This document shows, in pieces, positions 22,126 through 40,864 of a DNA stretch of 64,000 nucleotides. This DNA is from Bdellovibrio sp. CG22_combo_CG10-13_8_21_14_all_39_27 (GTDB taxonomy: Bacteria > Bdellovibrionota > Bacteriovoracia > Bacteriovoracales > Bacteriovoracaceae), in the NCBI GenBank assembly GCA_002786715.1, contig PCTW01000082.1, positions 1-64,000 of the forward strand, in the 5' to 3' direction. Both the position numbers and the translations under genes were made by a program. Every line of letters starts with the position of its first letter. Position 1 is the first letter of the stretch. The notes under the pieces are model-generated. The model saw only the letters and a list, made by a program, of their open reading frames with translations, searched no databases and was not told where the DNA came from.

Positions 22126-22890
22126 TTAATTTCTCGTAACCTTAATCGCCTTAATTCCAGTCGAACGAAAGTCGCTATCCACGCCTTCCACTGAAATGGT
22201 GTTCTCGCCCATATTAAGCGGAACAGCTTGGCAGAAGTATGTTTGAGCGCCCGTTGAAGTACAATAGATTCCATTAGCATTCACAAGATTGAGATCTACC
22301 TGAGTTGTAACCTCGACATCAACAGTTGTCGCTATTGTCGCAAATCCATCAACAGGTGAAGTAATTACCAAAATGGGTTCGGGCAAAGCACCAACTTCAG
22401 GAAGATCTTTATCGCAAAGCTCAGTGCTCACAATAACCATTTCATCCTTAATCTGCGATTGCCCGCAAAGTTTAGAATGACCAATCATCGTCGCCTCGCC
22501 AAACAGCTTGGCATCCTCAAAGACAGCAGCATTGCCATACACTCGAGCATTGCCAAAAACTTGGGCCTGATCGGCAATCACAACTAAGCTGGTACCAAAA
22601 GCCTTGGCCCGTCCATAAACCTCTGCATGCCCTGAGACCACCACATTTTTTCCAATTCTCGCTCTTCCATAGACACGAGAACTCCCCTCTATGCGACTTC
22701 CCTCTTCCACAATGGCACGATCACAAACTTGGGCATCGTAATCAACAAAGCTATCAGTCGAAACAGTGGCCGTCCTGGCAACAAAGCCATTGCCGTAAAT
22801 ATGTCGCTTCCCTAGCGCGCCTCCACACAAGGTAGGATCAGAGGCATAAGCAAAATTGAGTGAAGCGAGAACTAAAATAAAAAATTTCAT
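22126..22890 (-). CDS. Beta-helix operon gene 8: secreted hexapeptide-repeat protein with Ig-like end
   Basis: A 254-aa exported protein (signal peptide ends A-Y-A-S). The cap module shared by the operon runs from Cys22 to Cys56 (C-x33-C, with G-N-G-F-V-A-R-T-A between), followed by hexapeptide repeats to about 165 (V-Y-G-R-A-R, V-S-G-H-A-E, V-F-G-N-A-R) that predict a short left-handed beta-helix. Residues 170-254 are a beta-sandwich of the bacterial Ig/glucodextranase-B kind (I-T-S-P-V-D-G ... G-E-N-T-I-S-V-E-G-V-D). Its ATG overlaps the stop of the preceding gene by one base. It is the last gene of the operon. Confidence 0.82.
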   Translation of the reverse strand: MKFFILVLASLNFAYASDPTLCGGALGKRHIYGNGFVARTATVSTDSFVDYDAQVCDRAIVEEGSRIEGSSRVYGRARIGKNVVVSGHAEVYGRAKAFGTSLVVIADQAQVFGNARVYGNAAVFEDAKLFGEATMIGHSKLCGQSQIKDEMVIVSTELCDKDLPEVGALPEPILVITSPVDGFATIATTVDVEVTTQVDLNLVNANGIYCTSTGAQTYFCQAVPLNMGENTISVEGVDSDFRSTGIKAIKVTRN

Positions 22891-24650
22891 TAGTAATTCC
22901 TATAAGGAAGGGGAATAGAAGGGGGCTGTCTGCTACAGTTTGAAACAGCATAAGTATTTTCAGTTATGCGCTCTTGAAAACACAAAAAGGTACTTTGCAC
23001 TTTGGCCTTACCAGAAACGATGACATTACCAAAGAGAATGGTACCTGCTCTTATTTCGGCCTCGTCTAAAACCATGGCATTTTCAGCGATAAACAAATCT
23101 CCTGAAACTCTAACTTGATCACGCAATTGAGAGCGACCGAGCATCATCAATGTGGCATTGGCCTCAACAGTCACAGAGTCGGTCACAAGAGCATCTTCAT
23201 ACATATTAAAAAGACTATTAATCGTTGCACTTCCCGAGATATGAGAGTTTTGATTCATTGTAAAAGCAGGTGAATTGACAGTTGCAAAACCAGAGATTCT
23301 TGAGTTGCCAGTCATGGTAGAGGTTGATTTAATTTCTTTCGAAGCCCCCCCACTCACAATTGCAAAATCAGTAACAGAAGAGTTTCCTGACATTGCGAAA
23401 AGGTTTGAAACGCTAGCATGACCAGAAACAATACTATCATCTCCCATTTGGACATTTTCTACTTTTGCGTAATCTAAAATTTTTGCTCGATCTCCCGCAT
23501 TTACTGAATCAATGAAAAGATCAATTCCCTCAAAGTAGGCATCGCCATAAAAATATGAACTACTAACTTGTACCGTTCCTAAGATATTTAGTGGGTTTGG
23601 ATTATCAAATACAATATTGACTATTTCAGTGTTCTTGATGCTAATTTGTCCATCTCTCGCATCAATATTTAAAGCATTTCTTGAAATTCTTGAATCAATA
23701 ATTTCGATAGCTCCCGCAAAAACAAGATTTGGACCATTAATATGAGAATTAATAACAACTGTTTTATCTGAAAAGGTTCCATTTTCAATGAATGAAGCAC
23801 CACAGACTTCCATACCTACAGGAATAAAAACACTTGCAGAAACAATTGAATCACTTGAAACGAATCCCCCTCCGTTAGGATGTGGAAGTCCTAAAGCTCC
23901 ATTACATGGAGGAGTACCTGAGTCATCGTCGACAATCGTTACCGTTATATTGCTCGTATTATCTATTACAATATCAGGATCAGAAACTTCAGTTATAAGT
24001 AAATCAAAGGATTCAGTAGTCTCAGGAAGCGAATCATTAATTGAATTAAGAGTAAATGATCCACTAGTTTTACCCTCTAGAATTGTAATACTGCTGGGAA
24101 TTGAAGAAACATCAATACTTGATGCTGTAGCCACATCAAACAATGGCCTAATAAAAATTTCTAAATCTTTTTTTGCAGGTGAATCGAGAAGAACTCCTAC
24201 TTCAACCGCACTCCCCCCTTCTACAAGTTCTATATCGATCTGTTCAAAGCGGACCATTTGATCAGATACCCCAGAGATCAAATTCTTTGTTATTGTATTA
24301 GATTTTTTAGTAAAGGAGTTCGTAACGGTCAAAGTAACTTTGTGAGTGCCGTTTGAATTGTAGATTTTTGTAGGCTTTGCTGTATCGTTCCCATCGATAC
24401 TCCCTTTTCCTCCAAAATCCCATTTGTAAGTCAGCTTAGTAGCTCCAGCTTTATCGGGATTTGAGTCGAATGAACCTGTTGCATCGAAAAAAACTCTTTT
24501 GGTATTTGTTTGATCAATGACGAATTCAAATTTTGCAACTGGGGGCAAGTAACAATTAGTTTTTTCATCATTATCGCAAGCATAAAGATTGCAAATGAAA
24601 CCAGAAATGCCAAATATAAATACTAAAAATATATATTTTAATTCATTCAT
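22890..24650 (-). CDS. Beta-helix operon gene 7: PKD + Calx-beta + cap/hexapeptide helix
   Basis: A 586-aa exported protein with a hydrophobic signal (residues 5-20). Domains in order: PKD (about 35-125, with Y-K-W-D-F-G-G and G-T-H-K-V-T-L-T-V), Calx-beta-like (about 132-243, with I-D-I-E-L-V-E-G-G and ending I-V-D-D-D), then the operon's cap module from Cys249 to Cys283 (C-x33-C around H-P-N-G-G-G-F-V-S), then hexapeptide repeats to about 570. The cargo precedes the helix here, whereas in its sister genes it follows, so the cap is a true module and not merely an N-terminal sequence. Confidence 0.82.
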   Translation of the reverse strand: MNELKYIFLVFIFGISGFICNLYACDNDEKTNCYLPPVAKFEFVIDQTNTKRVFFDATGSFDSNPDKAGATKLTYKWDFGGKGSIDGNDTAKPTKIYNSNGTHKVTLTVTNSFTKKSNTITKNLISGVSDQMVRFEQIDIELVEGGSAVEVGVLLDSPAKKDLEIFIRPLFDVATASSIDVSSIPSSITILEGKTSGSFTLNSINDSLPETTESFDLLITEVSDPDIVIDNTSNITVTIVDDDSGTPPCNGALGLPHPNGGGFVSSDSIVSASVFIPVGMEVCGASFIENGTFSDKTVVINSHINGPNLVFAGAIEIIDSRISRNALNIDARDGQISIKNTEIVNIVFDNPNPLNILGTVQVSSSYFYGDAYFEGIDLFIDSVNAGDRAKILDYAKVENVQMGDDSIVSGHASVSNLFAMSGNSSVTDFAIVSGGASKEIKSTSTMTGNSRISGFATVNSPAFTMNQNSHISGSATINSLFNMYEDALVTDSVTVEANATLMMLGRSQLRDQVRVSGDLFIAENAMVLDEAEIRAGTILFGNVIVSGKAKVQSTFLCFQERITENTYAVSNCSRQPPSIPLPYRNY

Positions 24651-24689
24651 AAAAGTTACTTAAACAATCTGAACAGTAAATTATACTTT

Positions 24690-25439
24690 TTACCAAGGAC
24701 ACTGATTGCCTCCATCGTCGTTCAAAACAAAATCATCAAAAGATGATGAAGTCACACTTTTAATAACAATTTTATCGTCCTTTTTCCTACGACAAAAGAG
24801 AATCGTGGAATCATGTTTCAATACCTGATCCTCAATTTGTTGTCCTGCTCTTGCAAAAAATTTTCTAGGCATAATAATTGATTCATCGTTTCTTAAAAAA
24901 ATCATTTTAGTGTTAGGCAACCATTTTATACCAATAAACAAGATAATCTTTTTTGATTCGACTTCTCTAAAAAAACAACTATCATCCCAAATAGGACGTA
25001 GGCCATCTTCATTAAATATTTTATCAACATCAATTGAAAAATCATTTTTTTGTTTTACAATTTCACCTGTCTGATCGAATTCAATGAAATGGCCTTTTGC
25101 AAATTTAACCCCATTTACAAAAGCATCTTTGGCCAGAATGCCGCATTTGAATTTAAAATTAGGAAAAAAATATGCATTAAAATTCTTATCAATTTCAAAT
25201 TCATCTACTCTAAAATTTATAGGTATTTTTGTTGCGAACCTTAAATCTTTCCCCTGCATTATAATATATGATCCAGCAGGTAGCTCTCCCCCAACAAACT
25301 TAACGCTCTTGTTAATAACTCCATTTTTAAGAGGTAGATCATCATTGTTTAGCTTTTTTTTAGCAACGATAGGATTACAAAAAGCACTAGAGAGAAATAT
25401 TGTAAAGAATAAGATTTTAACAAATATCAATTTTATCAT
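24690..25439 (-). CDS. Beta-helix operon gene 6: secreted protein without the helix module, 249 aa
   Basis: The only gene of the operon lacking the cap and hexapeptide repeats. It has a signal peptide (residues 4-20, S-S-A-F-C-N) and a beta-rich mature part with short turn-type strands (V-K-F-A-K-G-H-F-I-E-F-D) and scattered cysteines. Its ATG overlaps the stop of the preceding gene (ATGA). No family is recognised; its position suggests an accessory role such as folding, anchoring or inhibition of the neighbouring peptidase-bearing protein, which is speculation. Confidence 0.72.
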   Translation of the reverse strand: MIKLIFVKILFFTIFLSSAFCNPIVAKKKLNNDDLPLKNGVINKSVKFVGGELPAGSYIIMQGKDLRFATKIPINFRVDEFEIDKNFNAYFFPNFKFKCGILAKDAFVNGVKFAKGHFIEFDQTGEIVKQKNDFSIDVDKIFNEDGLRPIWDDSCFFREVESKKIILFIGIKWLPNTKMIFLRNDESIIMPRKFFARAGQQIEDQVLKHDSTILFCRRKKDDKIVIKSVTSSSFDDFVLNDDGGNQCPW

Positions 25440-28400
25440 AATAAAAATTCCAGATGATGATGGTAAAGGTGTGTCTTGTCATTAACATATTTGAACACTA
25501 TCCCAGTTTTTTCTAAACTACATACTCCATCTACTTCATTGCATCGAATAGGTCGATCTATGATTGGAACAGAAATAATCCCCCTCCCTCCAACATTAAT
25601 AAGATCAAACCAACCTATGATTGCACCTACTACTATTGAGATATTCCATTTTCCTATATCAATAAAATTGCTCTCATCTTCAGCTCCTCTAGAAATAATC
25701 AAATTTTGAATTAATTTTCCATTTACTTGATTAAATTCTCCAAGAGCTTTAAATCCTAGTCTCAAATCATCTACCCAATCGGCAAGTTTCTTTAATTCAG
25801 GAGAATTCTCTATCTCTCTGTTAAAGACGGCTTGCCTAATAAGATCCTTTCTCTCCAGGTAACGAGCCGACAATTCATTATTTCTAAGACTGTGCGTCAA
25901 ATAAGTTATGTCTAAATTTTTTCCAATCTTATGTCCTGTTTTGTGAGGTCTAAATGCCCCTCCAAATGGGAGTGAGCCATCATTACATTTTAATCTTTTT
26001 GGTAATTCAAGATTCTCGGCAGTAGGAGTTAACATTTTCTTCAAAGTGAGAAATGAATGCCAGGTCAAGTAGCGGTCAATCACATTGCCAAATTCTGGAC
26101 AAGGAATCAACCTACCGTTGTATAAAGGGATTTGATTAAAAAAGACGGGTGCACTTTCTCTTGCCGTTCCATTTTCAATTGTAGAGACCGTAAATAAAAA
26201 ATTCACCTTTGTAACAGGAATTTTATCGACCCTATTTAACCAATCAAGCGCTGGATTGTTTCCAATAGAATCAATAGGCAATTGAACAATCAAATTAACG
26301 CAATTGAACTCACGGCAAGAGAATTCTTCTTTTTGGACAACACTATACTGTTTATTAGTAAATACTCCTTCTGCATCTTTTTTGCCAAAAAATTGGGTTG
26401 TATTCTTATCCTCTTTTTTAGAATCATTTCGCTCAACCGAAAGTCCAAGATCTGCATACTTTTGATTTTTTGGAAACTGCGCCGTTACAGTAAATTCCAA
26501 AAACCACCCTTTATTATAGCTATGAGGTAATGGCCCTTTTGTGCCACTTGGAACAGGAGCTACTGAAGTCAAATCTACACTTGTCGGAAAATACTCACTC
26601 GTCTCATTTCCATGACCATCAATTCTCTTAATTGAATTTGGAATAATTCTTGGTTGATTTTGTTCGAAAACAACACCGACTCCAATTGCTGATCCACAGC
26701 TAGATGAAGGCCCTCTTTTTAATGAAGTGGCACTCATTTCAATTTCAATTTCGATTTCATCTTGCTTAAAGCTCTTTGCTTTTTTTACTTCAATCGTTTC
26801 CCAATGTGAGGTGCTTACAGCATCACCAATTTGTGGAAATTCTTTATCTGCAGGGATGGAGGTTGTAACTCGAGTAAAATCAATCGGAGCTTTCCCAGGA
26901 ACCTTAATAGTTAAATTAACAAGATCTTCGGTTTCTTCACCGATCGTAAAGACTTGGTAAGCAACGATAATTGAATCCTTGTTGGCCGGTATTTTCTTTT
27001 TATAATTCAGCTTGGCAACTTTTCCTACTTTATCAGGAGTAAAGACAATCTTTTCAATCGCAAAATTTGATCTCGGGTCCTGCCCTTTGAGTTGCTTTTC
27101 AAATTTTAGTAAATTCTTGTTCGCTTGTGGCATTGTCTTTGTTGGGATTTCATTAAAAGAGATGATTCTCTCTGAAGTGAACTGAGGAAAAGCGACGACC
27201 AGATCACTTCTGTATTCATCGGCGTATTTTGCAATCAGAAGATAGCCGTCAAAGGGTAGATTTTTAAACTCAAATTCTCCAGAACTTCCAAGTCGAATCT
27301 CTTTATAGAGATCAAACTTTGTGCCTTTTAAGATTATGGTGGCGTTGCTTCGATCAGTAACCCTGCCTTTAATTGTACCTGAACCAAAGTAGATATTGGT
27401 AATCGTGCTGGTGTGTTCGACTCCTGACTCATCGAGAGCGTTAAAGTTGATTTTAAATTCATCATGCAGATCAATCGATTTCTTAAGGAGTTCTTCCATT
27501 GAAATCTTAAGTCTGCCATCTTCAACTCTTGAGATTCCAGAAATATCAAGTCTCGAAGGCAGACCACTACTTTCAACATAAACTTCTAATGCTGATTTAT
27601 TATCTGCGATAGGACTCAAATTCGGAACCAATTCGATGGCGATATCTTCATCACTAATGGGAATAATGCGATCATCATGTCCAATAATTCTTGAACAAGT
27701 GGTATCACCTATTTCTTGTTCACAGTTAACAGTTATTTCAGCGTAACTTGTATTAAAGCCACCAAGCTCATCCGTCACTTTAAGAGCAACGGTAAAAACG
27801 CCAGGGCCTATAAACTGATGGATAGGTTTAGGACCGGTAGCAGTGGTTCCATCTCCAAAATCCCAGTCATAGGAGACGACCATACCATCTTCATCACTTG
27901 AATCAGACCCGTTAAAATTGACTGTAAGATGGTTTTTCTTAGTGGCAAAAACATCGGCCTTAATAAAGGAGATCGGATCAGTGTTTAGCGGAAGTTCGAC
28001 TTCGAGAGGCAAAGTAAGAGAGTCACTCTCTCCATTTTTATCAATTGCCGTCATCTTAACAAAATATTTTCCCACAACTCTATACGAATGAGTCAGCTCC
28101 GACTTTTCATTTTCTCCCTCATCGCTTTGGTCCCCAAAGTCCCAAATGTATCTCAGTGTTAAATAGGAACCATTTCTTTCAGAGCTATCAATTGCATCAA
28201 AGGAGACTTCTCTATTGGGAAAATTGATATTTGATTGATTTCTATTAATTTTAAATTCTGCATAAGGAATCGGACAAAAATCAAATCGATTAAAAACATA
28301 CTCCGCTCTCTCAAGCTTGTTGTCTTTACAGACTCGACCATTGGCCTCGATTCTCACAGTGCCTGCAATGATCGCATTGCCTTGAACTCGGGCATTGTTT

Positions 28401-28801
28401 GAGAGTTTGGCGTAACCGTAGATTTTGGCCTTTTCTCTGACCAGAATATGATTGATTCCACTGGCCTCAAGTTTAGCGCCACCAAAGATTTCAACTTGAT
28501 CTTTTATGGTCACGTTACCCGAAATTTTCGCTCGTCCATAGACTTTAACTTCATCTTCAATTCTTGGAGTATCACTACCTAGTGCTGAGACAATCGCGCG
28601 GTCACAGACTTCGACATTGGGTCCTAAATAAACTCCCGCATCGACTTTAGCGGTTAAAGCGACAAAGCCTCCTGTTGGATTGCCCACTTCATCGTTTGGA
28701 TTGAAGTGCCTCGCGCCCGATTGGTTGTCGCAGTTTCTGCCCCAGCTATTAAAGGAGAGCAGCAGAAGAGAGAGAAATAGAAGAGATCGAGTCTTGTTCA
28801 T
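25436..28801 (-). CDS. Beta-helix operon gene 5: cap/helix + two PKD + carboxypeptidase-regulatory-like + MepA-like peptidase
   Basis: A 1121-aa exported protein. Signal peptide about 1-21; cap module Cys24-Cys66 (longer loop, x41); hexapeptide repeats to about 150; two PKD domains (about 190-360; Y-I-W-D-F-G-D and Y-D-W-D-F-G-D); a carboxypeptidase-regulatory-like beta sandwich (about 475-545; I-K-G-R-V-T-D); a long beta-rich stretch; and from about 947 to the end a region matching the M74 murein endopeptidase pattern: G-G-A-F followed by H957-K-I-G-K-N-L-D964, with a C-terminal H1111-L-Y-H-H-H. Those supply the HxxGxxxD and HxH-type zinc ligands of LAS enzymes. Predicted to cut peptidoglycan or a related cross-link. 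Confidence 0.78.
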   Translation of the reverse strand: MNKTRSLLFLSLLLLSFNSWGRNCDNQSGARHFNPNDEVGNPTGGFVALTAKVDAGVYLGPNVEVCDRAIVSALGSDTPRIEDEVKVYGRAKISGNVTIKDQVEIFGGAKLEASGINHILVREKAKIYGYAKLSNNARVQGNAIIAGTVRIEANGRVCKDNKLERAEYVFNRFDFCPIPYAEFKINRNQSNINFPNREVSFDAIDSSERNGSYLTLRYIWDFGDQSDEGENEKSELTHSYRVVGKYFVKMTAIDKNGESDSLTLPLEVELPLNTDPISFIKADVFATKKNHLTVNFNGSDSSDEDGMVVSYDWDFGDGTTATGPKPIHQFIGPGVFTVALKVTDELGGFNTSYAEITVNCEQEIGDTTCSRIIGHDDRIIPISDEDIAIELVPNLSPIADNKSALEVYVESSGLPSRLDISGISRVEDGRLKISMEELLKKSIDLHDEFKINFNALDESGVEHTSTITNIYFGSGTIKGRVTDRSNATIILKGTKFDLYKEIRLGSSGEFEFKNLPFDGYLLIAKYADEYRSDLVVAFPQFTSERIISFNEIPTKTMPQANKNLLKFEKQLKGQDPRSNFAIEKIVFTPDKVGKVAKLNYKKKIPANKDSIIVAYQVFTIGEETEDLVNLTIKVPGKAPIDFTRVTTSIPADKEFPQIGDAVSTSHWETIEVKKAKSFKQDEIEIEIEMSATSLKRGPSSSCGSAIGVGVVFEQNQPRIIPNSIKRIDGHGNETSEYFPTSVDLTSVAPVPSGTKGPLPHSYNKGWFLEFTVTAQFPKNQKYADLGLSVERNDSKKEDKNTTQFFGKKDAEGVFTNKQYSVVQKEEFSCREFNCVNLIVQLPIDSIGNNPALDWLNRVDKIPVTKVNFLFTVSTIENGTARESAPVFFNQIPLYNGRLIPCPEFGNVIDRYLTWHSFLTLKKMLTPTAENLELPKRLKCNDGSLPFGGAFRPHKTGHKIGKNLDITYLTHSLRNNELSARYLERKDLIRQAVFNREIENSPELKKLADWVDDLRLGFKALGEFNQVNGKLIQNLIISRGAEDESNFIDIGKWNISIVVGAIIGWFDLINVGGRGIISVPIIDRPIRCNEVDGVCSLEKTGIVFKYVNDKTHLYHHHLEFLL

Positions 28802-30100
28802 TTAGATTTCATTTCCTCGATTATAATCTCCAGTTATGAGATTTGCTGTGCCGTGGATCAGTGCCGTTCCATGAATCAAAGTATCGCCTCCTACTTCGGC
28901 ATTCTCAAAGATTTGACCCAGCTCAAAAACTGAAGCTGTGCCATAGACTCTGCCGTTACCGTAAATTTCTGCGTTCCCGTAGATTTTAGCACTATCAGCA
29001 ACCGAGCTGTCATCATAGATTTGCGCTTTCCCTGAAACTTCAGCAGTTCCTCTCACGACACCGCGCCCGTAAACTTGGGCGTGTCCTAAGATTTTCGCAA
29101 ATTCAAAGACATCAGCATTGTCGTAGAGGATTGAGTCACCAGATACTTGAGCATTGTCATGCACTTTAGCATTGCCTCTTACTTTTGCCCTCGCACTAAT
29201 GAGGGCACTGTCAAAGACTTCGGCATTATCAAAAACCTCTGCACGAGAGAGAATTTGAGCATTTCCATAGACTCTAGCATCACCAAAGACACGGGACTTA
29301 TCACTAACAATCGCGTTGTCGTAAATGAGAGCATTGTCTCCAACTCGAGCGAAATCTGAAACAGTAGCATTACCACTAATTAAAACTTCACCGTAGGCAA
29401 TAACATTATCTTTTACCGTTGCCGTATCACCAACTTGAGCAAAGTCATTGAGGATGGCAAAGTCAAAAACTTTGGCAAGTGCGTAGACTTGTGAAAAGTT
29501 ATTAAGAGTTGTTTGCCCGTAAACTTCTGCTGAACCATAAATAACAACTGAGTCATTGAGAGTTACTTTCTCTCTCACAACAGCAGAACCAAAAACTTGG
29601 CAGTCTCCATTAATTATCACTTCATCTCTTACACTAGCGCTGCCATAAACTTGTGCTTCACTTTGAGCAGAAAATTGGACAAGACCTACAATGCTGGAAG
29701 TTTCAAAAATCAAGGGTTCACCTTGAATAAGCAATTCAGTTAAGGTCGAGTTCGCAACCAACTGAGAAGTAATACTCGCTTGATCATAAATTTTGGCATT
29801 GCCAGTAATCGTCATAGGAGCATCAACACTTGTTAGGGTTGCGCTGTTATAGACTCTCGCAAGTCCACTGATGACAATCCTTTGAGCATTATTAGTTGTG
29901 ACAACCACATTGTCTAAAACTTGAGCTTCATCACAAACTTCCGCATCGACGCCAAGATAAACTGTGGCATCGACGGTGGCGGTGTCAGCAACAAAGCCAC
30001 CACCGTTGGCGTGAGTACTTCCTGGTACGCCACCGCAATTGATGGCGTACACAGGCAGAGAGAGAATTCCGAAAAGAGCTACTAAAAATGAATATTTCAC
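28802..30100 (-). CDS. Beta-helix operon gene 4: nearly pure hexapeptide-repeat beta-helix
   Basis: A 432-aa exported protein: signal peptide 1-19 (ending V-Y-A), cap module Cys22-Cys56 (C-x33-C around H-A-N-G-G-G-F-V-A-D-T-A), then about 60 consecutive hexapeptides to the C-terminus (patterns A-K-V-R-G-N, A-Q-V-Y-G-R, A-E-I-Y-G-N). This predicts an uninterrupted left-handed beta-helix of about 20 turns. The start is GTG, with GGAG upstream, and gives the signal peptide; the frame is open a further 72 codons upstream, but that overlaps the preceding gene and is not taken. It directly abuts the next gene with no gap. Confidence 0.85.
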   Translation of the reverse strand: MKYSFLVALFGILSLPVYAINCGGVPGSTHANGGGFVADTATVDATVYLGVDAEVCDEAQVLDNVVVTTNNAQRIVISGLARVYNSATLTSVDAPMTITGNAKIYDQASITSQLVANSTLTELLIQGEPLIFETSSIVGLVQFSAQSEAQVYGSASVRDEVIINGDCQVFGSAVVREKVTLNDSVVIYGSAEVYGQTTLNNFSQVYALAKVFDFAILNDFAQVGDTATVKDNVIAYGEVLISGNATVSDFARVGDNALIYDNAIVSDKSRVFGDARVYGNAQILSRAEVFDNAEVFDSALISARAKVRGNAKVHDNAQVSGDSILYDNADVFEFAKILGHAQVYGRGVVRGTAEVSGKAQIYDDSSVADSAKIYGNAEIYGNGRVYGTASVFELGQIFENAEVGGDTLIHGTALIHGTANLITGDYNRGNEI

Positions 30101-30113
30101 TTTATTCTCCAAA

Positions 30114-31232: not shown

Positions 31233-32924
31233 TTAATAAATATATTCAACAAAAATTGGAAGCAATGAAGAAGCTACATCAGAGCGACCTAATGGCCCAG
31301 AGCCCCAGCACATCAACACTCCCTCTGATCCAGCGCAAACTGAATTTAAAGTTGTCCCTAGGGTTGTCGGATTTAAGCCTTGAAGTACAGGAGTCACTAA
31401 GTCAATTCTATTTGTGCCTGATCCAATACCAAGTATGCCTACGTAACCCCAACAGCCCATTTGACCAAAAGCCACCGCACAAACTCCATTATAGCTTGAG
31501 GCTAAGTTGGAGACTGCAGGCAAGGAATTGACTGAAAGAGTTGGAATTTCAGTGGTAGCACCACCATGGCCACCTTGTAGATAAGTATTATTCCCCCAGC
31601 AATAAACTTCTTCATTGTCATTAATGGCACATGAAGAGACCCCTCCGAGTGAAATTGTTTGAACCGAGCCGATACTTACTGATAATGCAGTCGGTGAATA
31701 ATTATCAGTACCTATTATTCCGCTTCCCAATTGACCATAGTTGTTTGAACCCCAACATTGAACAGTGTTATCAGAAAGGACAGCGCAAGAGTGATTTTCC
31801 CCTACAGCAATATTAATCGCCGTCGTGATCCCTGTTGCCGTTGGAATATTTTTATCAATATTTGTTCCATCGCCAAGTTGACCATGACTATTAGCTCCCC
31901 AGCACCAAACACTTCCCGTTGATGATAGGGCACAGTTATGATTAAAACCTGAAACAACTTTTGTGATCGAAGTTAAACCACTTGCCACGACAGGAGTATC
32001 TGAATCGATAATGCTGGCATTACCTAGTTGTCCTGAGCTATTTAGCCCCCAACATTCAACGGTATCATTATTTCGAACGATACAAGTGTGAAATGAGCCG
32101 GTAGAAACGTCAGTAGCATCAAGAATTCCCGCTACCGCATTTTTAAGTTTGATTGTACTCTGAGCTCCTGCGAAAGAAGGAATCCCTAATTGACCAAATT
32201 GATTATTACCCCAACAAATAACCTGTGAGCCATACTGAGATGAACCAATCATACACATATGATGAGAGACTGAACTTTGTGAAAGTTTTGAGATTGAAAT
32301 TGGAGGAGCGCAATGATTCCATCCTCCTGAGATTTCAAAATCAATATTCTCATTATTACATACAACAGCACTTGAAGTGATTTTTCCTTCAGGACCAACG
32401 GTCGCCAAGCCATGCACTGTTGAAGATTCAATATAGCCTCCACCAATTAAGGCGTGACCATAAATTTTTGAAGAGATGATTTTAGAATCACTTATCACTC
32501 TGGCATTTCCATAAATTGTGGAATTATCAATTTGAGCATCATCCTCAATCACTGCATGTCCAAAAATTGAAGTTCCAGTCGTCACGTTTAATGTAGGGAT
32601 GCCAGGAAGTAAAAATCCACGTAAATTGGCAAACCCTCCTACATCAGAATCGTTTATCACAACATTTCCCTCAATTGTTGCAAAGTCGTTAACATTTGAA
32701 TTATTAATAATTTGAGCATTACCAGAAATTTTGGCATAGCCACAAACAGCACTATTACTAGAAACGACAACACTTGGTGCAACATTGGCGGTAATTGCGA
32801 CAAAGCCTCCACCATTGGGATGAGCAAATCCAATGTCACCTGCACATTGGGCCCATGCATTTGAAGTTAATCCAAAAGAGATGAGGGCCAACGCCATCAC
32901 TCCACACTTTTTCAATACATTCAT
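31233..32924 (-). CDS. Beta-helix operon gene 2: cap/helix + RCC1-like beta-propeller
   Basis: A 563-aa exported protein. Signal peptide about 1-25; cap Cys27-Cys61 (C-x33-C around H-P-N-G-G-G-F-V-A); hexapeptide repeats to about 215; then from about 235 to the end RCC1 repeats of about 50 residues, each with H-x-C-x(n)-C-W-G-x-N-x-x-G-Q-L-G (for example V-E-C-W-G-L-N-S-S-G-Q-L-G). The paired cysteines in each blade are typical of secreted bacterial RCC1 propellers, which usually mediate binding. It is 18 nt upstream of the next gene. Confidence 0.87.
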   Translation of the reverse strand: MNVLKKCGVMALALISFGLTSNAWAQCAGDIGFAHPNGGGFVAITANVAPSVVVSSNSAVCGYAKISGNAQIINNSNVNDFATIEGNVVINDSDVGGFANLRGFLLPGIPTLNVTTGTSIFGHAVIEDDAQIDNSTIYGNARVISDSKIISSKIYGHALIGGGYIESSTVHGLATVGPEGKITSSAVVCNNENIDFEISGGWNHCAPPISISKLSQSSVSHHMCMIGSSQYGSQVICWGNNQFGQLGIPSFAGAQSTIKLKNAVAGILDATDVSTGSFHTCIVRNNDTVECWGLNSSGQLGNASIIDSDTPVVASGLTSITKVVSGFNHNCALSSTGSVWCWGANSHGQLGDGTNIDKNIPTATGITTAINIAVGENHSCAVLSDNTVQCWGSNNYGQLGSGIIGTDNYSPTALSVSIGSVQTISLGGVSSCAINDNEEVYCWGNNTYLQGGHGGATTEIPTLSVNSLPAVSNLASSYNGVCAVAFGQMGCWGYVGILGIGSGTNRIDLVTPVLQGLNPTTLGTTLNSVCAGSEGVLMCWGSGPLGRSDVASSLLPIFVEYIY

Positions 32925-32947
32925 CTTTATCTCCTTTTTATCATCAT

Positions 32948-35900
32948 CTACTGACAGATTTCATTATTGGTTAGGGTCTTAAAACAAAGCTTATTATTCT
33001 TTTTGTACATCTCCTTAATAAAGGGCAATTTTTTAATCGCAGAATCTTTCCTTTGAACTTTATCGAAACAATGAACTTCGCCCTCGTTTGTTAAGGAGCA
33101 ATCATCAATCCAATTAATTGGTTCCGTGAGAGAGCGACTCATTTCTTTTCGATTTGAAATGACCGTGTTCATTCCAGTAAAATCACCACACTTTTGGAAC
33201 CCAAAAGCCTTATCAATTTCTGATTTGGCCCTAATTTTGATTGAGCAAGACTCGCCTTCTTGAATTTTTTGGTCGCGACAATCGTTATCGAGTAAAACAA
33301 GATTCTTTGAATCACGCCCCACTAAACTCAACGGCGCACAATCAAGAGCATCAGCAAAACCAATGTTGAAGATTTCGATGATAGAAGTTTCATTCTTTGA
33401 AAGTTTTAAAACTTGAGGTCTTAATAATAGAGTTGGGAAATCGGGATCAATTCCGTTGGCATAGAGATCCCCTTGAATACTTCCGCCTTTTGTACAAGAA
33501 AAAGAAACCTGTGCCGTTCTCTCTCCTAACAGCTCTGAAGGAATGGAAGAAATACTACCTTGGCAAAAATCTCCTGGCGCAAGCTCAGTAACTGAGCTAC
33601 ATGGCTTTAAAAGACTGGTATAATCAATGGAAAATTCAATTGAATTTGAGCCCGTTAATTGTGGATTAGAGCACCCTCTTAAGTATCCCGTTCCATTGTT
33701 TAAGAAAGTAAAAACTCTTTCTGGACTTTGATAACCAACTCCCACATTTTGAAAGTTGAAGGCTTTGGGTGCCATAACTATTGAACTTGGGAGCAATTTC
33801 CCCATAGAATGGAGATTAGCTGTAACGCTTCCACCAATTGAACAAGTTCGTCGCACTTGAGCTTCTTTTTTGGTCAATGATGTCGGCGCCGATTCAATTG
33901 CAAACTGGCAATAGTCGCCTGGCGCAAGATCATTGGTACCGCAGCTTTTTTCACTTAGAGTAATGATAGAAAATTCTGCGGCATCAACTCCTTCAAGCAC
34001 AGGAGCTGAGCAACCTTTAACTGGGCCAGGACCATTATTAATGACTTTGAAAACTTGCTGTTTGGAAATTTGGTTCTCACCGACCACCAAGAAATCATGT
34101 TCGCTTGGAGAGAAGGAAAGAGCAGAATTTCCTAGTTTGGCAAAAGTGGTCAAGTTAGATGAAACAGTTCCACCTATTGCGCATACTCTCTCTAAGGTAG
34201 CACTTTTAAGACCAATCGATTGTGGCTTCGCGTAGACTTGAACAAAACATGAGGAACCGGCATCTAAATCATTAGTTAAGCATTGATCAACTTCAAGTTC
34301 AAAATCAGCAGCATCAATTCCAGTTAATGTAGGAGCGCTACAACCAGAGACTTTCCCTTCACCTAAATTATTAAAGGTTATTTTCTTTAGACTTGAACTA
34401 TTTCCGACAACCGTTGGAGGAAACTGATAGGAAGGAGGATTCACCGTAAGTGATAGAACACCACTGATTGAATTGGCCTTCAGATCAATACTTACACTCC
34501 CACCCAAAGCACAACTATAGTCAAGCGAGGCTACTTTTTGACCAAGAGATGAAGGATGTGCGGTTATTCCAACATGACAGGCTTGAGACGCACCTAAATC
34601 CTCGGTCCCACAGGTATCTCTTGAGATTGAAAAGTCTGAAGCATTAATTCCAGAGAGAACCGGCGAAATACAGCTTCGTGCCACTCCTGAACTTGAATTT
34701 GTGATAACAAGGTCGATCTCTTTAGTCGCTTGACCTGAAACAATAGAACCAAAATTAATCTGTGACTGATTAGCAATGAGTGCACTTTCTTCAAGCTTAC
34801 CTTCAACACTTAAACTGGCCGTCGCATCCCCACCAATGCCACAAGCATGACTAAGTTGAGCAACCTTGACTCCCGTACTTGCAGGTCTTGCTTCAACCAC
34901 AACTTGGCAAGATTCATGAGCATTGAGAGTTGATAAACAACTATCGCTGACAATTGAAAAATCCGATGCGTTAGCTCCTTGAATAATTGTCGCTGAACAA
35001 TTAAGTAGTGAAGCTACGCCATTGTTTGTGAATTTAAAAACTTGTTGCTTCGAATTTTGTCCAGTCGTACTGTCACCAAAGGCAAACGTGGAAGGAGTTA
35101 CACCTTGCTCAGAATTCGCTGATACCCCAGTTACCTTTAACGAGGTTTGTCCAGTTCCGCCAAAACCACAAGTTCTGCTGAGAATGGCATTTTTTTGACC
35201 TAAGCTAACTGGGGCGGCCATGACTTGAACTTGACAAGACTCTTTTGGACCCAAGTCTTGAGTGGAGCATGTCTCTTGAACAATAGTAAAAGAAGTTACA
35301 TCTGCACCCGTTAATAATGGTGCGGAACAACTTCGAGCACTCCCTGTACCTAAGTTCGTAAAGCTTAAATTTAATATTTGAGAAGCATGATTGACTCCAA
35401 TGCTTAAGAAGTCATGTTCCACTTTAGAGAAGCTTAAATGAGAATCTGAACCCTCTGCAATAGCACTTAATTGCATGGATGCTGTTCCACCAATTCCACA
35501 ATCTCTTACAAGACTAGTGCTTTTTGGTCCAATTGAAATTGTTCTTGATTCTATTGCAATCAAACAAACCGATTGTGCACTTAAATTATTTGAAGAACAT
35601 TGATCATCGATGATTGAAAATTCGCTGGCATTTCCCCCAACTAAGCTAGCAGGAGTACAGCTTGAAGCCATCCCTGGCCCATTGTTTCTTACTTTTGCGT
35701 AAAAAACTTGTCCAGTACTTAAGACTTGCACTTTAGGAAATTGATATGAGCTTTGAAGAAAACTTATCATAGGGTTTGCTGATTCTGAAAGTGATTTTAT
35801 ATCGGCAATGGCCTTGCCACCAACAATACATTCTCTTTCAATGCGCGCAGTTTTTGCTCCAAGAGTCGTTGGTGTCGATGCAACTTCGATTTCACAACTA

Positions 35901-38900
35901 TCCATGGCATTCATGTTTGTTGAACACGTCGTCGTTATGATCTGAAATTGATCGGCATCAATGCCGACCAGAGTAGGAGGAGAGCACAGCTTTGATTTCC
36001 CACCGCTGGTGTTCGTGACTTTGAATACTTTGGAAGCTGAAGAATTCCCCATTCCGACTTTAAGGAAATCAAATTGAGCAGGATTAATAGGCATTTTTGC
36101 TATTATAGGAACACCTGTGGCGCTCAATGCACTTGAGATTGTTCCAATTAAGGGACAACTAAAATCTAATGAAGCCACCAGAGCATTAAGGTTCGTAGGA
36201 TGCGCGCTAACGTAAATGTTGCAAGATTGCCCAACATTGAGATGATCAGTGCAATTACTGACAGAGGTTAAGGCAAAATCACTAGCATTTAATCCAGATA
36301 AGCCTGGAGCAGAGCAAGAGGTAATATCGATTGGGCCAGGATTTGAAAGAGTAAAAGTATGCTGAGTTGAATAAGCTCCCAACGTAACATCACCAAAATC
36401 ATAAGCAAGTGGTGTCATGTTAAGAGTAGGATTTGCTGATTCAGCAATCACGGATGATTCGAGGCTGCCATTTGAACAAGTTCTGCGAAGAAGTGTAGAC
36501 TTCGATCCAAGGGTTGTTGGAATTGCTCTTAAATCGACAGTACATGATTGTCCTATTCCCAATGATGAAGTACATGTATCGCTTCCTGATACAATCTCAA
36601 ACTCCAAATTATGACCTGTTTCAAGAGTGTAAATCCCACAGCCAGTTGCTACAGCATCACCTGTATTTGTAAGGGTTACTGTCAAGTTTGGCGACGCTTG
36701 ATTATTGGCCACATAACCAAAATCAATCGGAGCAGGAGCTGTGCTTAAAATTGGGCCAATCCCCGTTCCTGTTAATGAAGCGGAAATCACTCCACCGATA
36801 GTGCAAGTTCGCTCTAAAGTGGCCGATTTAAGCAAGCGTGTCGTTGGAGAAAATTGGACATTAACAGAACATGTTCCCCCTTGAGGAGACATATTTCCAT
36901 CGGGACAGTTCACGATACTTAATGAGAATTGATCGGCGTCTACTCCAGAGATTATGGGAGTTGTACAACCGATTGCCGTTCCATCTCCTGTATTTGTTAT
37001 AGTAAATAATTGTGGTGTCGAACTCTGAGCGACCTCTATAGTTCCAAAGTCAAATGATAAAGGGGCTATTTCCAGATTAGGACTTACTCCTGTACCAGAA
37101 ATAGTTGAGACGATCTCACCACCCACGGTACAATTTCTTCTCAAATTAAGGGACTTCACTCCACCACTTTGTGGAATAAAATCGAGAGCAATATCACATG
37201 TGCTGTTCTGACCGACATTATTCGTTCCACAACCATCAAGAGAAATGGCAAAATCGCTAGTATCTCCATCAATAGTGGGCAAAGAGCAACCAGTAGCACT
37301 TCCAAAACCTGAGTTAGAAATAGTGAAATTTTGAGTCAATGAAGATCCAAGTGAAACGCCACCATAATCAAAAGCAAGAGGAGAAATACTCAATTCAGGA
37401 GTATTTGGTCTTGATTCAGCAATTATGCCATTACTCAGCGTCTTAACTGTTCCCCCAATGAGACATGTTCTTGTCAGCGATGCTTTAATAATCCCAAGTT
37501 GGTTAGGATTCGTCGTTACATCTACGGTACAAGTAGACATGGCCGGTAGGTCACTACTGCCACAATTATCTGCAGTAATTAAAAAATCATCAAAGTTTTT
37601 GCCAGTTAAATAAACCACTGAACATTTCTGTGCATCAGCATTGCCAAGGTTACTGATGGTAAATGTTTGCGTGTTATAGGTTGAGCCAATCGGCGCTGGT
37701 CCGAAATCGTAACTCACGGGAGAAAAAGATAATTCTGGCGTTGGAGATAAAACTTGAGATTGAACTTCAAGAACAGTTGTAACGAGGCCACCATTAACAC
37801 AATTCCTCGTCAAGTCGGCCGTTCTTAGATCAATTCCGGTCGGCTTTGCGCGAACATAGAGAGAACATTGACCAATATTTGCAGGAAGATCAGAAGCACT
37901 GCAATCATCGGCAACAATCTCAAACTCGCTTGGATGAGCTCCAGTTAAAGTAGCAGGAGAGCAGCCTGTAGCATCAGTGCCTCCGATATTATTAATCTTG
38001 ATTTCAAAAGTATCAGAAACTTCACCGATCAAGAGATTTCCAAAATCTAAATTTTCTGGAGAAATTTTAATAACTGGTAGTTGGTCCTCTCCAAATATGG
38101 TTAAACCATTGGCCACAGTACTTGCCACACCACCTTGAACACAGTTTCTAAATAAAGTGGCACTACGGGTTCCAATATCTTGGGCCGTCGCTTGCACCGA
38201 AACATCACATGACTGACCAGATGCCAATGAAGTGGTACCGCAACCATCACTCACAATAATAAAATCGGTAGGATTCGCCCCCAAGATGACGGGAGCTGAA
38301 CAAAATTGGGCCAATGATCCAGAATCATTTCTAAATTTGAAGACTTCGACTGCTGAAGGAACAGATAAGTTATATGTTCCATAATGAAAACTCGAAGGCG
38401 TGACATTAAGAACGGGATTTAGGGCAGAATAAGTGATTCCTTCTTTAGTCGTAGAAGCGGTACCTGAAGATGTGCAAGTGCGAGTTAAAGTCGCTTTCTT
38501 TTCTCCACTTGAAGTTGGTTTAGGTGCAATACGAACTTCGCATTCTCCAACTCTATCTCCAATCACTAATTCATCAAGCAAAGGTGTCGATTGTCCGGTT
38601 CCTGAATGTAAATAAGCACGAAATTTAAATTGTCCATTCGGGCCCAGCAAAGATATTTTTTGAGATATTGTTTGTGCGGTTGATGTTTGTGCGAGACTTT
38701 CATTGGAAAGTGTCCAAGCAAAACCATTCCAATATTTCCAAGTAACACCATTGTCGTCAGATAATAGGTATCGAATGAGATCTCCATTAATATATGTCGC
38801 GCGCTCTTTAAAATTCTTTAACGCTGAAGATAAAGAAATAGCAGTCGCGAGTTCCACATAAGGATTGTCCTGCGGATATGAGAGCCAATCTGACGCTACT

Positions 38901-40864
38901 GTGTAATTACTTGAATGTTGAATAGAACTAAACAGGGCCAGCTGCGAAACGGAAAAGTTAGAACTTAAACTAGCAATTCGATTTGAACCAATCCTAATTG
39001 TAGATGTCGAAACTCCTGAACGATTCACTGTCGCCACGACCGTCGGACCAAATTGAGTCCCATCGACAAAAAGACGTGTTTCTCCATTAACAAAATCCGC
39101 ATTTACTTCTAACTCATATTCTTGTCCTGCAACAGCATTAAAGATTCCAAATCCTGAAGTTGAAACGAGGACTCCCGTATTGTCCCATACGTATGCTTTA
39201 AGCTCTCCTGTGGTAGCATCATGATTAAGTTGAAAGCGGTTAACCTCTGAACTTGAACTCGCAAAAGAACCAAAAAAAGCTTGATTTGTACTTGGTGTAC
39301 CATTGTAATTTGGAATAATTTTGAGTCTCACGGCAACTAGTTGATCAAAATTGTCCTTCCCTGCCGGATCATAATCAACATAGCTTATATCATTGTGAGC
39401 AAGGTTTAAACTTCCACTGCTAATACCTGCTTGACCGACTGCTGTCCCCGTCAGAGAACCAAGGCCGATATCACCATCAATGCTGGAGTTGTAGCTAGCG
39501 TAAAATGTGGCAGTTGGGATATAGCCTTTCTTAAGGGCGACTGTTCCATTGGCGACTTCAATTTGAGAAGGATCACTCAGTGTAAATCCAATCGAATTAT
39601 CAAAAGAATACGTCGTATTTCCACCCGAGAGTAAAATCAGATCACTTGTTCCACAAAAATCCTCCACGATAGAAAATTCATCTTTATCTTGATCGGCCAA
39701 AGCTGGTGCACTACAGCCAGTAATAACTTGTGATCCACTGTTTTGAAAAACAAAAGAAGTACTTGAGCTGCTTGTTTCCCCAACCATTGTAGGAGCAAGC
39801 GCTGCTTCGAGAGGAGAAACAGACATCAAGGAAGCATCCGTTGCTGTAAAGGAAATTCCTTGATCGATTGTTTTGACCAAGCCACCAACCGTACAATTCA
39901 TTGAAAGAGTCAGATTTTTGGGACCAATCGTTTGAGGTTTAGCCTTCAATTGAACAGAGCAATAGCCACCTTCAGCAACGAGTATTGAAACCGAACAAGA
40001 GTTAAATGAAACTTCAAAATCAGAGGTATCGCCAACTAATTGTGCCGCCGAACATCCAGTGGCATCTGCTCCCCCCTCATTAACGAAGGCAAACACTTCG
40101 GGATTGGAAACTGAGCCGATAGGAGTATCGGCAAATACTTTTCGATCTGGATAAAGGGATACGGCTGGAATTTTTGGAGTACTGCTACAGTATTTATGAG
40201 TGCTCTTAATAATTGTATTATTTGAAAAGATAATATCATCACAAACTTCAAAAGAAGTACCCTCAGATAAAATTTTAGCATTACCAGAAACTTGAGTTTT
40301 CCCATGAACTTTAATTGAAATAAGATTAGCATTTGGTATTTCGAATTTACTTTTTGGAAGTGCGTCGATCGGACCAACATAGGCATTTTCGGTTAAGCGT
40401 GCCTGACCGTAAACTTCAGAGAATATGACGATAGAGTTGCCTCTTAAAACAGCTTGACCGTAAATAAGTGAGTTCGTAACATCAACATCGTCGTATAATT
40501 TTGCCTGGCCATAAATCCTAGACAAATCTATTGATAATAATCCCCTCGCATTTGTTCCATCCAGAAAAGCATTGCCTTCCACAATTGAATTTAATTGAAT
40601 CGAGACCTTGCCTTTAACATAGCTAAAGCCAGCAACTTTTGAACCGCCATCAATAGTGACAGAAGAACCATCGACTGTTGCGTAGTCACAAACCATGGAA
40701 TCAGCACCAATATGAGGATCGCCTATTATTTTCGCAGAGTCAGAAACAAATCCTCCACCATTTTCATGAAAATGACCTGGCTGTCCGTTGCAAGGCTTAA
40801 CTTGCGCGAATAGCGGGAAGGAAAAGACAATAAAACACACTGCAAGCAATTTTTGCTTGATCAT
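32948..40864 (-). CDS. Beta-helix operon gene 1: giant secreted protein with cap/helix, about 18 Cys-bearing ASH/HYDIN-like domains and inserted LamG-like domain
   Basis: A 2638-aa exported protein, first in the operon. Signal peptide about 1-20; cap Cys25-Cys59; irregular hexapeptide helix to about 210; then about 17 full and one degenerate ASH/HYDIN-like (choice-of-anchor-D type) units of about 105-115 residues. Each unit carries four spaced cysteines (G-C-S near strand 4, a second after F-x-I, a third in S-C-x-V, a fourth in R-x-C-x-x-G-G), probably two disulfides. Unit 2 is split: a LamG/concanavalin-like domain (about 450-765) lies between its second and third cysteines. The C-terminal ~80 residues resemble a fragment of an RCC1 blade. 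The ATG at 40864 has GGAG six bases upstream; an ATG 19 codons earlier adds non-signal residues. Confidence 0.82.
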   Translation of the reverse strand: MIKQKLLAVCFIVFSFPLFAQVKPCNGQPGHFHENGGGFVSDSAKIIGDPHIGADSMVCDYATVDGSSVTIDGGSKVAGFSYVKGKVSIQLNSIVEGNAFLDGTNARGLLSIDLSRIYGQAKLYDDVDVTNSLIYGQAVLRGNSIVIFSEVYGQARLTENAYVGPIDALPKSKFEIPNANLISIKVHGKTQVSGNAKILSEGTSFEVCDDIIFSNNTIIKSTHKYCSSTPKIPAVSLYPDRKVFADTPIGSVSNPEVFAFVNEGGADATGCSAAQLVGDTSDFEVSFNSCSVSILVAEGGYCSVQLKAKPQTIGPKNLTLSMNCTVGGLVKTIDQGISFTATDASLMSVSPLEAALAPTMVGETSSSSTSFVFQNSGSQVITGCSAPALADQDKDEFSIVEDFCGTSDLILLSGGNTTYSFDNSIGFTLSDPSQIEVANGTVALKKGYIPTATFYASYNSSIDGDIGLGSLTGTAVGQAGISSGSLNLAHNDISYVDYDPAGKDNFDQLVAVRLKIIPNYNGTPSTNQAFFGSFASSSSEVNRFQLNHDATTGELKAYVWDNTGVLVSTSGFGIFNAVAGQEYELEVNADFVNGETRLFVDGTQFGPTVVATVNRSGVSTSTIRIGSNRIASLSSNFSVSQLALFSSIQHSSNYTVASDWLSYPQDNPYVELATAISLSSALKNFKERATYINGDLIRYLLSDDNGVTWKYWNGFAWTLSNESLAQTSTAQTISQKISLLGPNGQFKFRAYLHSGTGQSTPLLDELVIGDRVGECEVRIAPKPTSSGEKKATLTRTCTSSGTASTTKEGITYSALNPVLNVTPSSFHYGTYNLSVPSAVEVFKFRNDSGSLAQFCSAPVILGANPTDFIIVSDGCGTTSLASGQSCDVSVQATAQDIGTRSATLFRNCVQGGVASTVANGLTIFGEDQLPVIKISPENLDFGNLLIGEVSDTFEIKINNIGGTDATGCSPATLTGAHPSEFEIVADDCSASDLPANIGQCSLYVRAKPTGIDLRTADLTRNCVNGGLVTTVLEVQSQVLSPTPELSFSPVSYDFGPAPIGSTYNTQTFTISNLGNADAQKCSVVYLTGKNFDDFLITADNCGSSDLPAMSTCTVDVTTNPNQLGIIKASLTRTCLIGGTVKTLSNGIIAESRPNTPELSISPLAFDYGGVSLGSSLTQNFTISNSGFGSATGCSLPTIDGDTSDFAISLDGCGTNNVGQNSTCDIALDFIPQSGGVKSLNLRRNCTVGGEIVSTISGTGVSPNLEIAPLSFDFGTIEVAQSSTPQLFTITNTGDGTAIGCTTPIISGVDADQFSLSIVNCPDGNMSPQGGTCSVNVQFSPTTRLLKSATLERTCTIGGVISASLTGTGIGPILSTAPAPIDFGYVANNQASPNLTVTLTNTGDAVATGCGIYTLETGHNLEFEIVSGSDTCTSSLGIGQSCTVDLRAIPTTLGSKSTLLRRTCSNGSLESSVIAESANPTLNMTPLAYDFGDVTLGAYSTQHTFTLSNPGPIDITSCSAPGLSGLNASDFALTSVSNCTDHLNVGQSCNIYVSAHPTNLNALVASLDFSCPLIGTISSALSATGVPIIAKMPINPAQFDFLKVGMGNSSASKVFKVTNTSGGKSKLCSPPTLVGIDADQFQIITTTCSTNMNAMDSCEIEVASTPTTLGAKTARIERECIVGGKAIADIKSLSESANPMISFLQSSYQFPKVQVLSTGQVFYAKVRNNGPGMASSCTPASLVGGNASEFSIIDDQCSSNNLSAQSVCLIAIESRTISIGPKSTSLVRDCGIGGTASMQLSAIAEGSDSHLSFSKVEHDFLSIGVNHASQILNLSFTNLGTGSARSCSAPLLTGADVTSFTIVQETCSTQDLGPKESCQVQVMAAPVSLGQKNAILSRTCGFGGTGQTSLKVTGVSANSEQGVTPSTFAFGDSTTGQNSKQQVFKFTNNGVASLLNCSATIIQGANASDFSIVSDSCLSTLNAHESCQVVVEARPASTGVKVAQLSHACGIGGDATASLSVEGKLEESALIANQSQINFGSIVSGQATKEIDLVITNSSSGVARSCISPVLSGINASDFSISRDTCGTEDLGASQACHVGITAHPSSLGQKVASLDYSCALGGSVSIDLKANSISGVLSLTVNPPSYQFPPTVVGNSSSLKKITFNNLGEGKVSGCSAPTLTGIDAADFELEVDQCLTNDLDAGSSCFVQVYAKPQSIGLKSATLERVCAIGGTVSSNLTTFAKLGNSALSFSPSEHDFLVVGENQISKQQVFKVINNGPGPVKGCSAPVLEGVDAAEFSIITLSEKSCGTNDLAPGDYCQFAIESAPTSLTKKEAQVRRTCSIGGSVTANLHSMGKLLPSSIVMAPKAFNFQNVGVGYQSPERVFTFLNNGTGYLRGCSNPQLTGSNSIEFSIDYTSLLKPCSSVTELAPGDFCQGSISSIPSELLGERTAQVSFSCTKGGSIQGDLYANGIDPDFPTLLLRPQVLKLSKNETSIIEIFNIGFADALDCAPLSLVGRDSKNLVLLDNDCRDQKIQEGESCSIKIRAKSEIDKAFGFQKCGDFTGMNTVISNRKEMSRSLTEPINWIDDCSLTNEGEVHCFDKVQRKDSAIKKLPFIKEMYKKNNKLCFKTLTNNEICQ

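What the first reader, a model, noticed from the sequence alone, without database searches (positions are those of the whole stretch)
22126..40864. Eight-gene operon of modular beta-helix surface proteins, apparently a new system
Seven of eight genes share one plan: a cap with two cysteines and an H-x-N-G-G-G-F-V-like core, then hexapeptide repeats, then a different cargo per gene (Ig-like, PKD+Calx-beta, PKD+MepA-like, none, none, RCC1, ASH array+LamG). Gaps are -4 to +39 bp, so one ~18.7-kb transcription unit. A set of exported proteins with a common scaffold and variable binding or enzymatic heads looks like a modular adhesin or prey-interaction kit. The architecture is seen directly; the function is inference.
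Basis: partly seen in the sequence, partly recalled or inferred. Interest (0 to 1): 0.93.

Follow-up and report, generated by a model that had tools for sequence, protein, structure and literature searches.

The report
Predator operon of capped β-rod proteins
A relative of the predatory bacteria Bacteriovorax carries a run of eight co-directional genes, seven of which make exported proteins sharing one cysteine-capped β-solenoid rod (the same rod that lets a plant-pathogen protease, Svx, recognise sugar-coated targets) joined to different heads, one of them a likely cell-wall-cutting enzyme; it looks like a set of secreted or surface tools for binding envelopes, but the function is not proven.

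Summary
Eight minus-strand genes (22126-40864) lie at most 39 bp apart; seven carry one ~60-aa cap (C..G..H.N..GGFVA.TA.V...VC) followed by hexapeptide β-solenoid repeats. A cap HMM built without window sequences finds exactly these seven (E 1e-19 to 5e-12), and none in 400 shuffles. Corrections: in gene 22890-24650 the cap-rod is C-terminal; gene 24690-25439 has no cap and only marginal matches elsewhere; no LamG in Pfam. The MepA-like head is supported: seven aligned sequences keep H-x2-G-x3-D...H-x2-H-x-H, and five match Peptidase_M74.

The module is not unique: 50 of 369 genomes of the phylum have it, including smaller clusters. Closest characterised relative: the left-handed β-helix domain of the type-II-secreted protease Svx; the cap matches that NCBIfam model in 24 of 32 sequences. 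Published work shows that domain is needed to cut a glycoprotein substrate, attributed to glycan recognition. Best explanation: a co-expressed set of exported proteins whose rod recognises envelope glycans and presents different heads. Homology to a glycan-targeting module is tested; ligand, surface location and role in predation are inference. New variant of a known kind. AlphaFold gave a regular solenoid but did not confirm handedness.

The parts
22126..40864 (-). Eight-gene co-directional run (H-G-F-E-D-C-B-A), putative operon
   Evidence: ORFs and gaps -4 to +39
32948..40864 (-). Gene H, 2638 aa from the ATG at 40864: signal peptide, cap, short β-helix, long array of choice-of-anchor-D/ASH domains
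   Evidence: LamG not found
40610..40792 (-). Cap of H
31233..32924 (-). Gene G, 563 aa: signal peptide, cap, β-helix, RCC1 propeller (about 31323-32228)
   Evidence: RCC1_2 5.4e-39, WD40_RLD 7.8e-48
32664..32846 (-). Cap of G
30114..31214 (-). Gene F, 366 aa: signal peptide, cap, β-helix only
30966..31154 (-). Cap of F
28802..30100 (-). Gene E, 432 aa (GTG start 30100): signal peptide, cap, long β-helix only; full-length counterpart (30% over 448 columns) of the 429-aa protein in L017
   Evidence: start site; YdcK structure match 3.3e-14; solenoid model pLDDT 84-97 over residues 221-390 of the mature protein
29855..30037 (-). Cap of E
25436..28801 (-). Gene D, 1121 aa: signal peptide, cap, short β-helix, two PKD domains, unassigned middle, C-terminal M74/MepA-like metallopeptidase domain
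28520..28732 (-). Cap of D (8-residue insertion before GGFV)
25436..26194 (-). M74 (MepA)-like domain of D; invariant H953, H957, G960, D964, H1111, H1114, H1116 (numbered from alignment A5)
   Evidence: Peptidase_M74 in 5 of 7 family members
24690..25439 (-). Gene C, 249 aa: signal-peptide-like start, no cap, no rod, no known family
22890..24650 (-). Gene B, 586 aa: signal peptide, PKD, Calx-beta-like, then cap and β-helix at the C-terminus
   Evidence: PKD_4 3.1e-10; Calx-beta below cut-off
23724..23906 (-). Cap of B (internal)
22126..22890 (-). Gene A, 254 aa: signal peptide, cap, β-helix, Glucodextran_B/Ig-like domain
22645..22827 (-). Cap of A
40986..41015 (-). Candidate sigma-70 promoter (TTGACC-18-TATACT) upstream of H
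   Evidence: weak, total count of such sites equals the shuffled expectation

Best explanation
The run encodes a co-expressed set of exported proteins built on one module: a two-cysteine cap followed by a hexapeptide-repeat β-solenoid, homologous to the left-handed β-helix domain of the secreted protease Svx. Shown here: the shared module, its homology to the Svx domain, the export signals, the variable heads and a conserved metallopeptidase active-site pattern in D. Inferred: (1) the two cap cysteines form a disulfide that closes the end of the rod outside the cytoplasm; (2) the rod is a non-catalytic glycan- or glycoprotein-recognition element, as reported for Svx; (3) the proteins leave the cell by Sec plus type II secretion, or stay on the envelope; (4) the rod places the heads on an envelope, with D's M74-like domain cutting peptidoglycan cross-links and the Ig, PKD, RCC1 and ASH heads binding or spacing. 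In a relative of obligate predators the likeliest target is the prey envelope or the predator's own surface matrix during attachment and entry.
For: Cap detected in 7 genes by an HMM from other genomes. The cap (61-101 aa pieces) matches NCBIfam Svx/AvrXca in 24 of 32 sequences (best 4.9e-11), twice the next family; in five window proteins the first cap cysteine falls on the same Svx profile position (~455, computed; D agrees once its 8-residue insertion is counted). Svx is type-II secreted, and deleting its β-helix domain abolishes cleavage of extensins but not of azocasein (PMC13164431); the domain lacks acyltransferase residues (PMC9266454). All 37 PDB hits of the module profile are left-handed β-helix proteins. 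A type II secretin is present in this genome. Cap-rod joined to enzymes recurs: the G013 protein L033 has six PKD + M74-like + cap-rod, the same modules as D in another order; other members combine cap-rod with PKD and a weak α/β-hydrolase-like region, and another family of the phylum with RING domains. M74 in 5 of 7 members of D's domain alignment.
Against: No ligand, localisation or expression data. Fold search of the E model gave mostly right-handed β-helix proteins at E>0.04 and TM<0.4, so the model does not confirm handedness. The D domain model was poor (pLDDT 46), and D itself does not reach Pfam M74. The Svx glycan role rests on deletion plus docking, not on a solved complex. Only 33 of 129 genomes in the family have the cap, so it cannot be essential to predation in general. 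No Svx-type peptidase was found in the phylum, though that search had no positive control, so only the rod module is shared. Whether Svx carries the same cysteine pair was not tested.
Confidence: 0.5

Rival explanations
1. Purely structural surface or matrix proteins: the rods are spacers or polymer-forming elements (bactofilin-like packing) that make a coat or biofilm matrix, with heads cross-linking it; no specific glycan recognition.
For: Two genes (E, F) are rod only; weak Bactofilin profile matches (F 3.3e-08); ASH, PKD and RCC1 are typical of surface display proteins.
Against: The bactofilin match is explained by generic β-helix periodicity; the cap matches Svx, where the domain acts in substrate recognition (PMC13164431); the cap-rod occurs fused to enzyme-like domains in several lineages.
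Confidence: 0.25
2. Periplasmic enzymes or remodelling factors of the bacterium's own envelope (sugar or lipid acyltransferases, a self cell-wall hydrolase), not outward-facing tools.
For: The rod is related by sequence to acyltransferases such as LpxA/LpxD; D carries an M74-like murein-endopeptidase-type domain; only Sec-type signals are visible.
Against: Acyl donors (acyl-CoA/ACP) are not expected in the periplasm (general knowledge); the best matches are YdcK and Svx types, not catalytic families; the heads are mostly binding domains.
Confidence: 0.15
3. A chance cluster of a repeat-rich gene family expanded by duplication, with little joint function.
For: No other genome searched has this eight-gene set; the cap occurs in a minority of genomes; the caps within the run are only 37-45% identical to E's.
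Against: All eight frames are intact with tight spacing; the caps in the run do not form a recent single clade (weakly resolved); clusters recur in G004, G079 and G118, with a ~180-aa capped gene followed by a ~430-aa capped gene in G004 and G079.
Confidence: 0.1

Closest known systems
Svx/AvrXca secreted metallopeptidases (NCBIfam NF040510; Pectobacterium Svx, PMC13164431, PMC9266454, PMC10815107)
   Same: The cap and the start of the rod match the Svx left-handed β-helix domain; exported; rod plus separate catalytic or binding domain.
   Different: Svx is one gene with a gluzincin peptidase before the rod; here seven rods in one run, other heads, no gluzincin; no Svx-type protein found in the phylum.
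YdcK family (NF040481, PF18836; PDB 2f9c/2pig)
   Same: Same hexapeptide β-solenoid repeats; best PDB sequence match.
   Different: The YdcK-like hits from other phyla (Bartonella, phage and others) mostly lack a signal peptide and lack the paired cap cysteines.
MAT (mosaic adhesive trimer) fibres of Bdellovibrio bacteriovorus (PMC10769870)
   Same: A set of predator proteins with shared scaffold and variable tips, at least one binding prey glycans; a functional parallel.
   Different: MAT proteins are trimeric fibres; homology to this set was not tested and nothing here suggests it.
MepA / Peptidase_M74 (PF03411; PDB 1tzp, 1u10)
   Same: D's C-terminal domain: GG-x-F...H-x2-G-x3-D and a terminal H-x2-H-x-H.
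   Different: D itself is below Pfam detection; the relationship appears only through its relatives.

Membership tests
Left-handed hexapeptide β-helix (LbH) proteins | Hexapeptide repeats and homology to LbH structures | tested here: met
   Profile of 22 cap-rod proteins: all 37 PDB hits at E<=0.001 are named as LbH-type proteins; Hexapep and YdcK repeats
Left-handed hexapeptide β-helix (LbH) proteins | Three-dimensional left-handed triangular helix | tested here: inconclusive
   Regular 6-residue solenoid, pLDDT 84-97 over residues 221-390 of E, but fold search matched mostly right-handed helices, weakly
Svx/AvrXca protein family | Cap and LbH module | tested here: met
   24 of 32 caps match NF040510; register consistent in window proteins
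Svx/AvrXca protein family | Gluzincin peptidase domain and curated score of 625 bits | tested here: not met
   Best window score 57.7 bits; none in 369 genomes at E<=1e-20 (no positive control rang). Shares the rod, is not a member
YdcK family | NF040481 curated cut-off of 350 bits | tested here: not met
   Best 81.7 bits
Peptidase_M74 / MepA (LAS) domain in gene D | H-x2-G-x3-D and terminal H-x-H zinc-site motifs conserved in relatives | tested here: met
   Invariant in seven sequences
Peptidase_M74 / MepA (LAS) domain in gene D | Pfam PF03411 score | tested here: inconclusive
   5 of 7 members match (best 2.3e-4); D itself does not; the structure model is poor
Acyltransferases of the LpxA/LpxD type | Curated family scores | tested here: not met
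   Highest about 50 bits against cut-offs above 200
MAT fibre superfamily | Trimeric fibre with MAT-specific tip/S74 features | not tested
   No MAT model searched; considered only as a functional parallel

The most novel reading that the evidence does not exclude
A predation toolkit: one transcript supplies a set of secreted glycan-binding rods that coat prey envelopes and bring different effectors to them, including a murein endopeptidase (D), with the two-cysteine capped rod as the Bdellovibrionota's general-purpose targeting module, re-used in other lineages to carry α/β-hydrolase-like or RING heads.
Probability: 0.25. Interest if true: 0.8.

Novelty: new variant of a known kind. Interest (0 to 1): 0.58.

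Why it matters
How Bacteriovorax-type predators recognise prey is open; MAT fibres are described for Bdellovibrio, not for this branch. The finding names a module without its own Pfam family, ties it by sequence to a β-helix domain with an experimentally supported targeting role (Svx), and shows that it is shuffled onto binding, murein-cutting-like and even RING heads across the phylum. That turns an anonymous 'hypothetical protein' run into testable proteins: bind purified rods to prey glycans, assay D on murein.

Tried and rejected
Promoter and terminator scans: counts equal the shuffled expectation. Rfam and tRNA: nothing. LamG in H: not found. Fold search of the D domain: the model was too poor to use. 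Fold search of E against PDB and viral models: no useful match. Plasmid, phage and viral collections: no close capped relatives, only cysteine-less YdcK-like phage repeats. First genome-contig scan with E: none. Gene C: only marginal matches. Extending the cap search to other phyla failed because the tool needs a genome handle there. Cap tree: too few columns to settle the order of duplication. One search's cysteine flags missed A and L008 because of how the script located the GGFV motif; both cysteines are visible.
Full report
OBSERVATION. The minus strand from 40864 to 22126 carries eight genes with gaps of +23, +18, +13, 0, -4, +39 and -1 bp. Gene E starts at a GTG at 30100 behind GGAG; the longer mechanical ORF overlaps F. 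Every gene begins with a signal-peptide-like stretch. Seven of the eight carry a ~60-residue cap, C-x-G-x2-G-x2-H-x-N-(x)n-G-G-F-V-A-x-T-A-x-V...V-C. In six of them the first cap cysteine lies a few residues after the likely signal-peptide cleavage site (read from the sequences, not predicted with a dedicated program); in B the cap is internal. After each cap come hexapeptide repeats. To exclude circularity I built the cap HMM from other genomes only: in six frames of the window it finds these seven ORFs and no other, and nothing in 400 shuffles.

HEADS. A: Glucodextran_B/Ig-like. B: PKD and a sub-threshold Calx-beta, placed before the cap. D: two PKD domains and a C-terminal domain. E and F: rod only. 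G: RCC1 propeller. H: about fifteen choice-of-anchor-D/ASH domains, no LamG in Pfam. C: 249 aa, no cap, no family, marginal matches only.

D'S DOMAIN. D alone has no Pfam hit at its C-terminus. Relatives found across the phylum share a GG-x-F...H-x2-G-x3-D block and a terminal H-x2-H-x-H. Five of seven members of the alignment match Peptidase_M74, and the profile's second PDB hit is MepA (1tzp, E 0.13, not significant alone), aligned on exactly that block. L033 (G013) has six PKD domains, the same M74-like motif and a cap-rod at the C-terminus: the modules of D in another order.

DISTRIBUTION. The cap occurs in 33 of 129 genomes of the family/order and 50 of 369 of the phylum. Named relatives are Bacteriovorax sp. 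BSW11_IV and a Halobacteriovorax marinus isolate, so the window belongs to the Bacteriovorax branch of Bdellovibrionota; its genus is not named. Smaller clusters exist in G004 (four capped genes in a row), G079 (three, plus a cap-like gene nearby) and G118 (two). In G004 and G079 a ~180-aa capped gene is followed by a ~430-aa capped gene; the short ones group firmly in the cap tree (99/97), and E aligns over its length with the 429-aa gene (30%). In G040 a capped protein lies next to a protein with RCC1, PKD and LamG domains that starts with an ASH-like stretch. A ~150-aa single-domain capped protein is widespread, including one elsewhere in this genome (L016). The caps within the window do not group as recent copies of one another, but the tree has too few columns to say more.

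WHAT THE MODULE IS. By sequence the rod is a hexapeptide left-handed β-helix: YdcK is the best PDB match, and all 37 PDB hits of a 22-sequence profile are LbH-type proteins. AlphaFold gives a regular six-residue solenoid with pLDDT 84-97 over residues 221-390, but low confidence in the cap, and fold search returned mostly weak right-handed helices, so handedness is not confirmed structurally. The telling result is NCBIfam: the cap matches Svx/AvrXca in 24 of 32 sequences, against 11 for the next family, and in window proteins the first cap cysteine maps to the same Svx profile position, about 455 (computed). Outside the phylum, the YdcK-like hits mostly lack both the cysteine pair and a signal peptide.

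HOW IT MAY WORK. Svx is secreted by type II secretion; deleting its β-helix domain leaves general peptidase activity but abolishes cleavage of the glycoprotein extensin, and docking places arabinan chains on that domain (PMC13164431). The domain lacks acyltransferase residues (PMC9266454). By homology I read the capped rod as a non-catalytic glycan- or glycoprotein-recognition element, probably disulfide-stabilised, that places a head on its target. In this run the heads are binding or spacing domains and one likely murein endopeptidase. The genome has a type II secretin. For a Bacteriovorax relative the likeliest targets are prey envelopes or its own surface matrix. Shown: anatomy, homology, motif conservation. 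Inferred: disulfide, export route, ligand, surface location, role in predation.

RELATION TO KNOWN SYSTEMS. It is not an Svx protein (no gluzincin, far below the curated cut-off), nor YdcK, nor a catalytic acyltransferase. It works, on present evidence, like the Svx targeting domain used in a set. MAT fibres of Bdellovibrio (PMC10769870) are a functional parallel only; homology was not tested. Hence 'new variant of a known kind'.

VERDICT. Interest 0.58.

Noticed in passing
L048-L059 (G330), L060-L064 (G331), L065 (G329), another family (f26) of the phylum: Large families of exported cap + YdcK-type rod proteins (at least 16 matches in G330, dispersed over contigs); of six scanned, three (two in G330, one in G331) end in RING-finger domains (zf-C3HC4 2.3e-09), suggesting eukaryote-directed effectors.
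   Followed up: partly
L005, L007, L010, L011, L012, L016 (this genome, contig C70), L031: A ~150-aa single-domain capped rod protein is conserved across Bacteriovorax/Halobacteriovorax-type genomes (55-71% identical to L005); possibly the basal member of the family.
   Followed up: partly
L101, L102, L104, L107-L111, L113 (G209, G212, G251): Large proteins (open frames of about 490-1750 aa) carrying a divergent Peptidase_M74/MepA-like domain, an apparently undescribed branch of that family.
   Followed up: partly
L025, L027-L030 (G085, G086): Proteins with a C-terminal cap-rod, PKD found in the two scanned (L025, L028); L028 shows a weak α/β-hydrolase (DUF900, E 0.056) match in its N-terminal part.
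   Followed up: partly
L022 14478-18443 (G040): A protein with transglutaminase-like, DUF6531 and RHS repeats directly downstream of a capped-rod gene and an RCC1/PKD/LamG gene.
   Followed up: no
41093-44149 and 21471-21869: A PAS/sensor histidine kinase and a receiver-HATPase protein lie directly upstream of the run in the same direction, and a stand-alone receiver protein directly downstream; possible regulators, not tested.
   Followed up: no
44427-47549 and 19073-20914: 1040-aa and 613-aa ORFs near the run without any Pfam match at E<=0.01.
   Followed up: no
L080 (Elusimicrobia), L035 and L037 (G060, G059): Signal-peptide-bearing rods with an H-x-NGGG-type cap that lacks the paired cysteines, a possible intermediate between the YdcK-type and the two-cysteine caps.
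   Followed up: no
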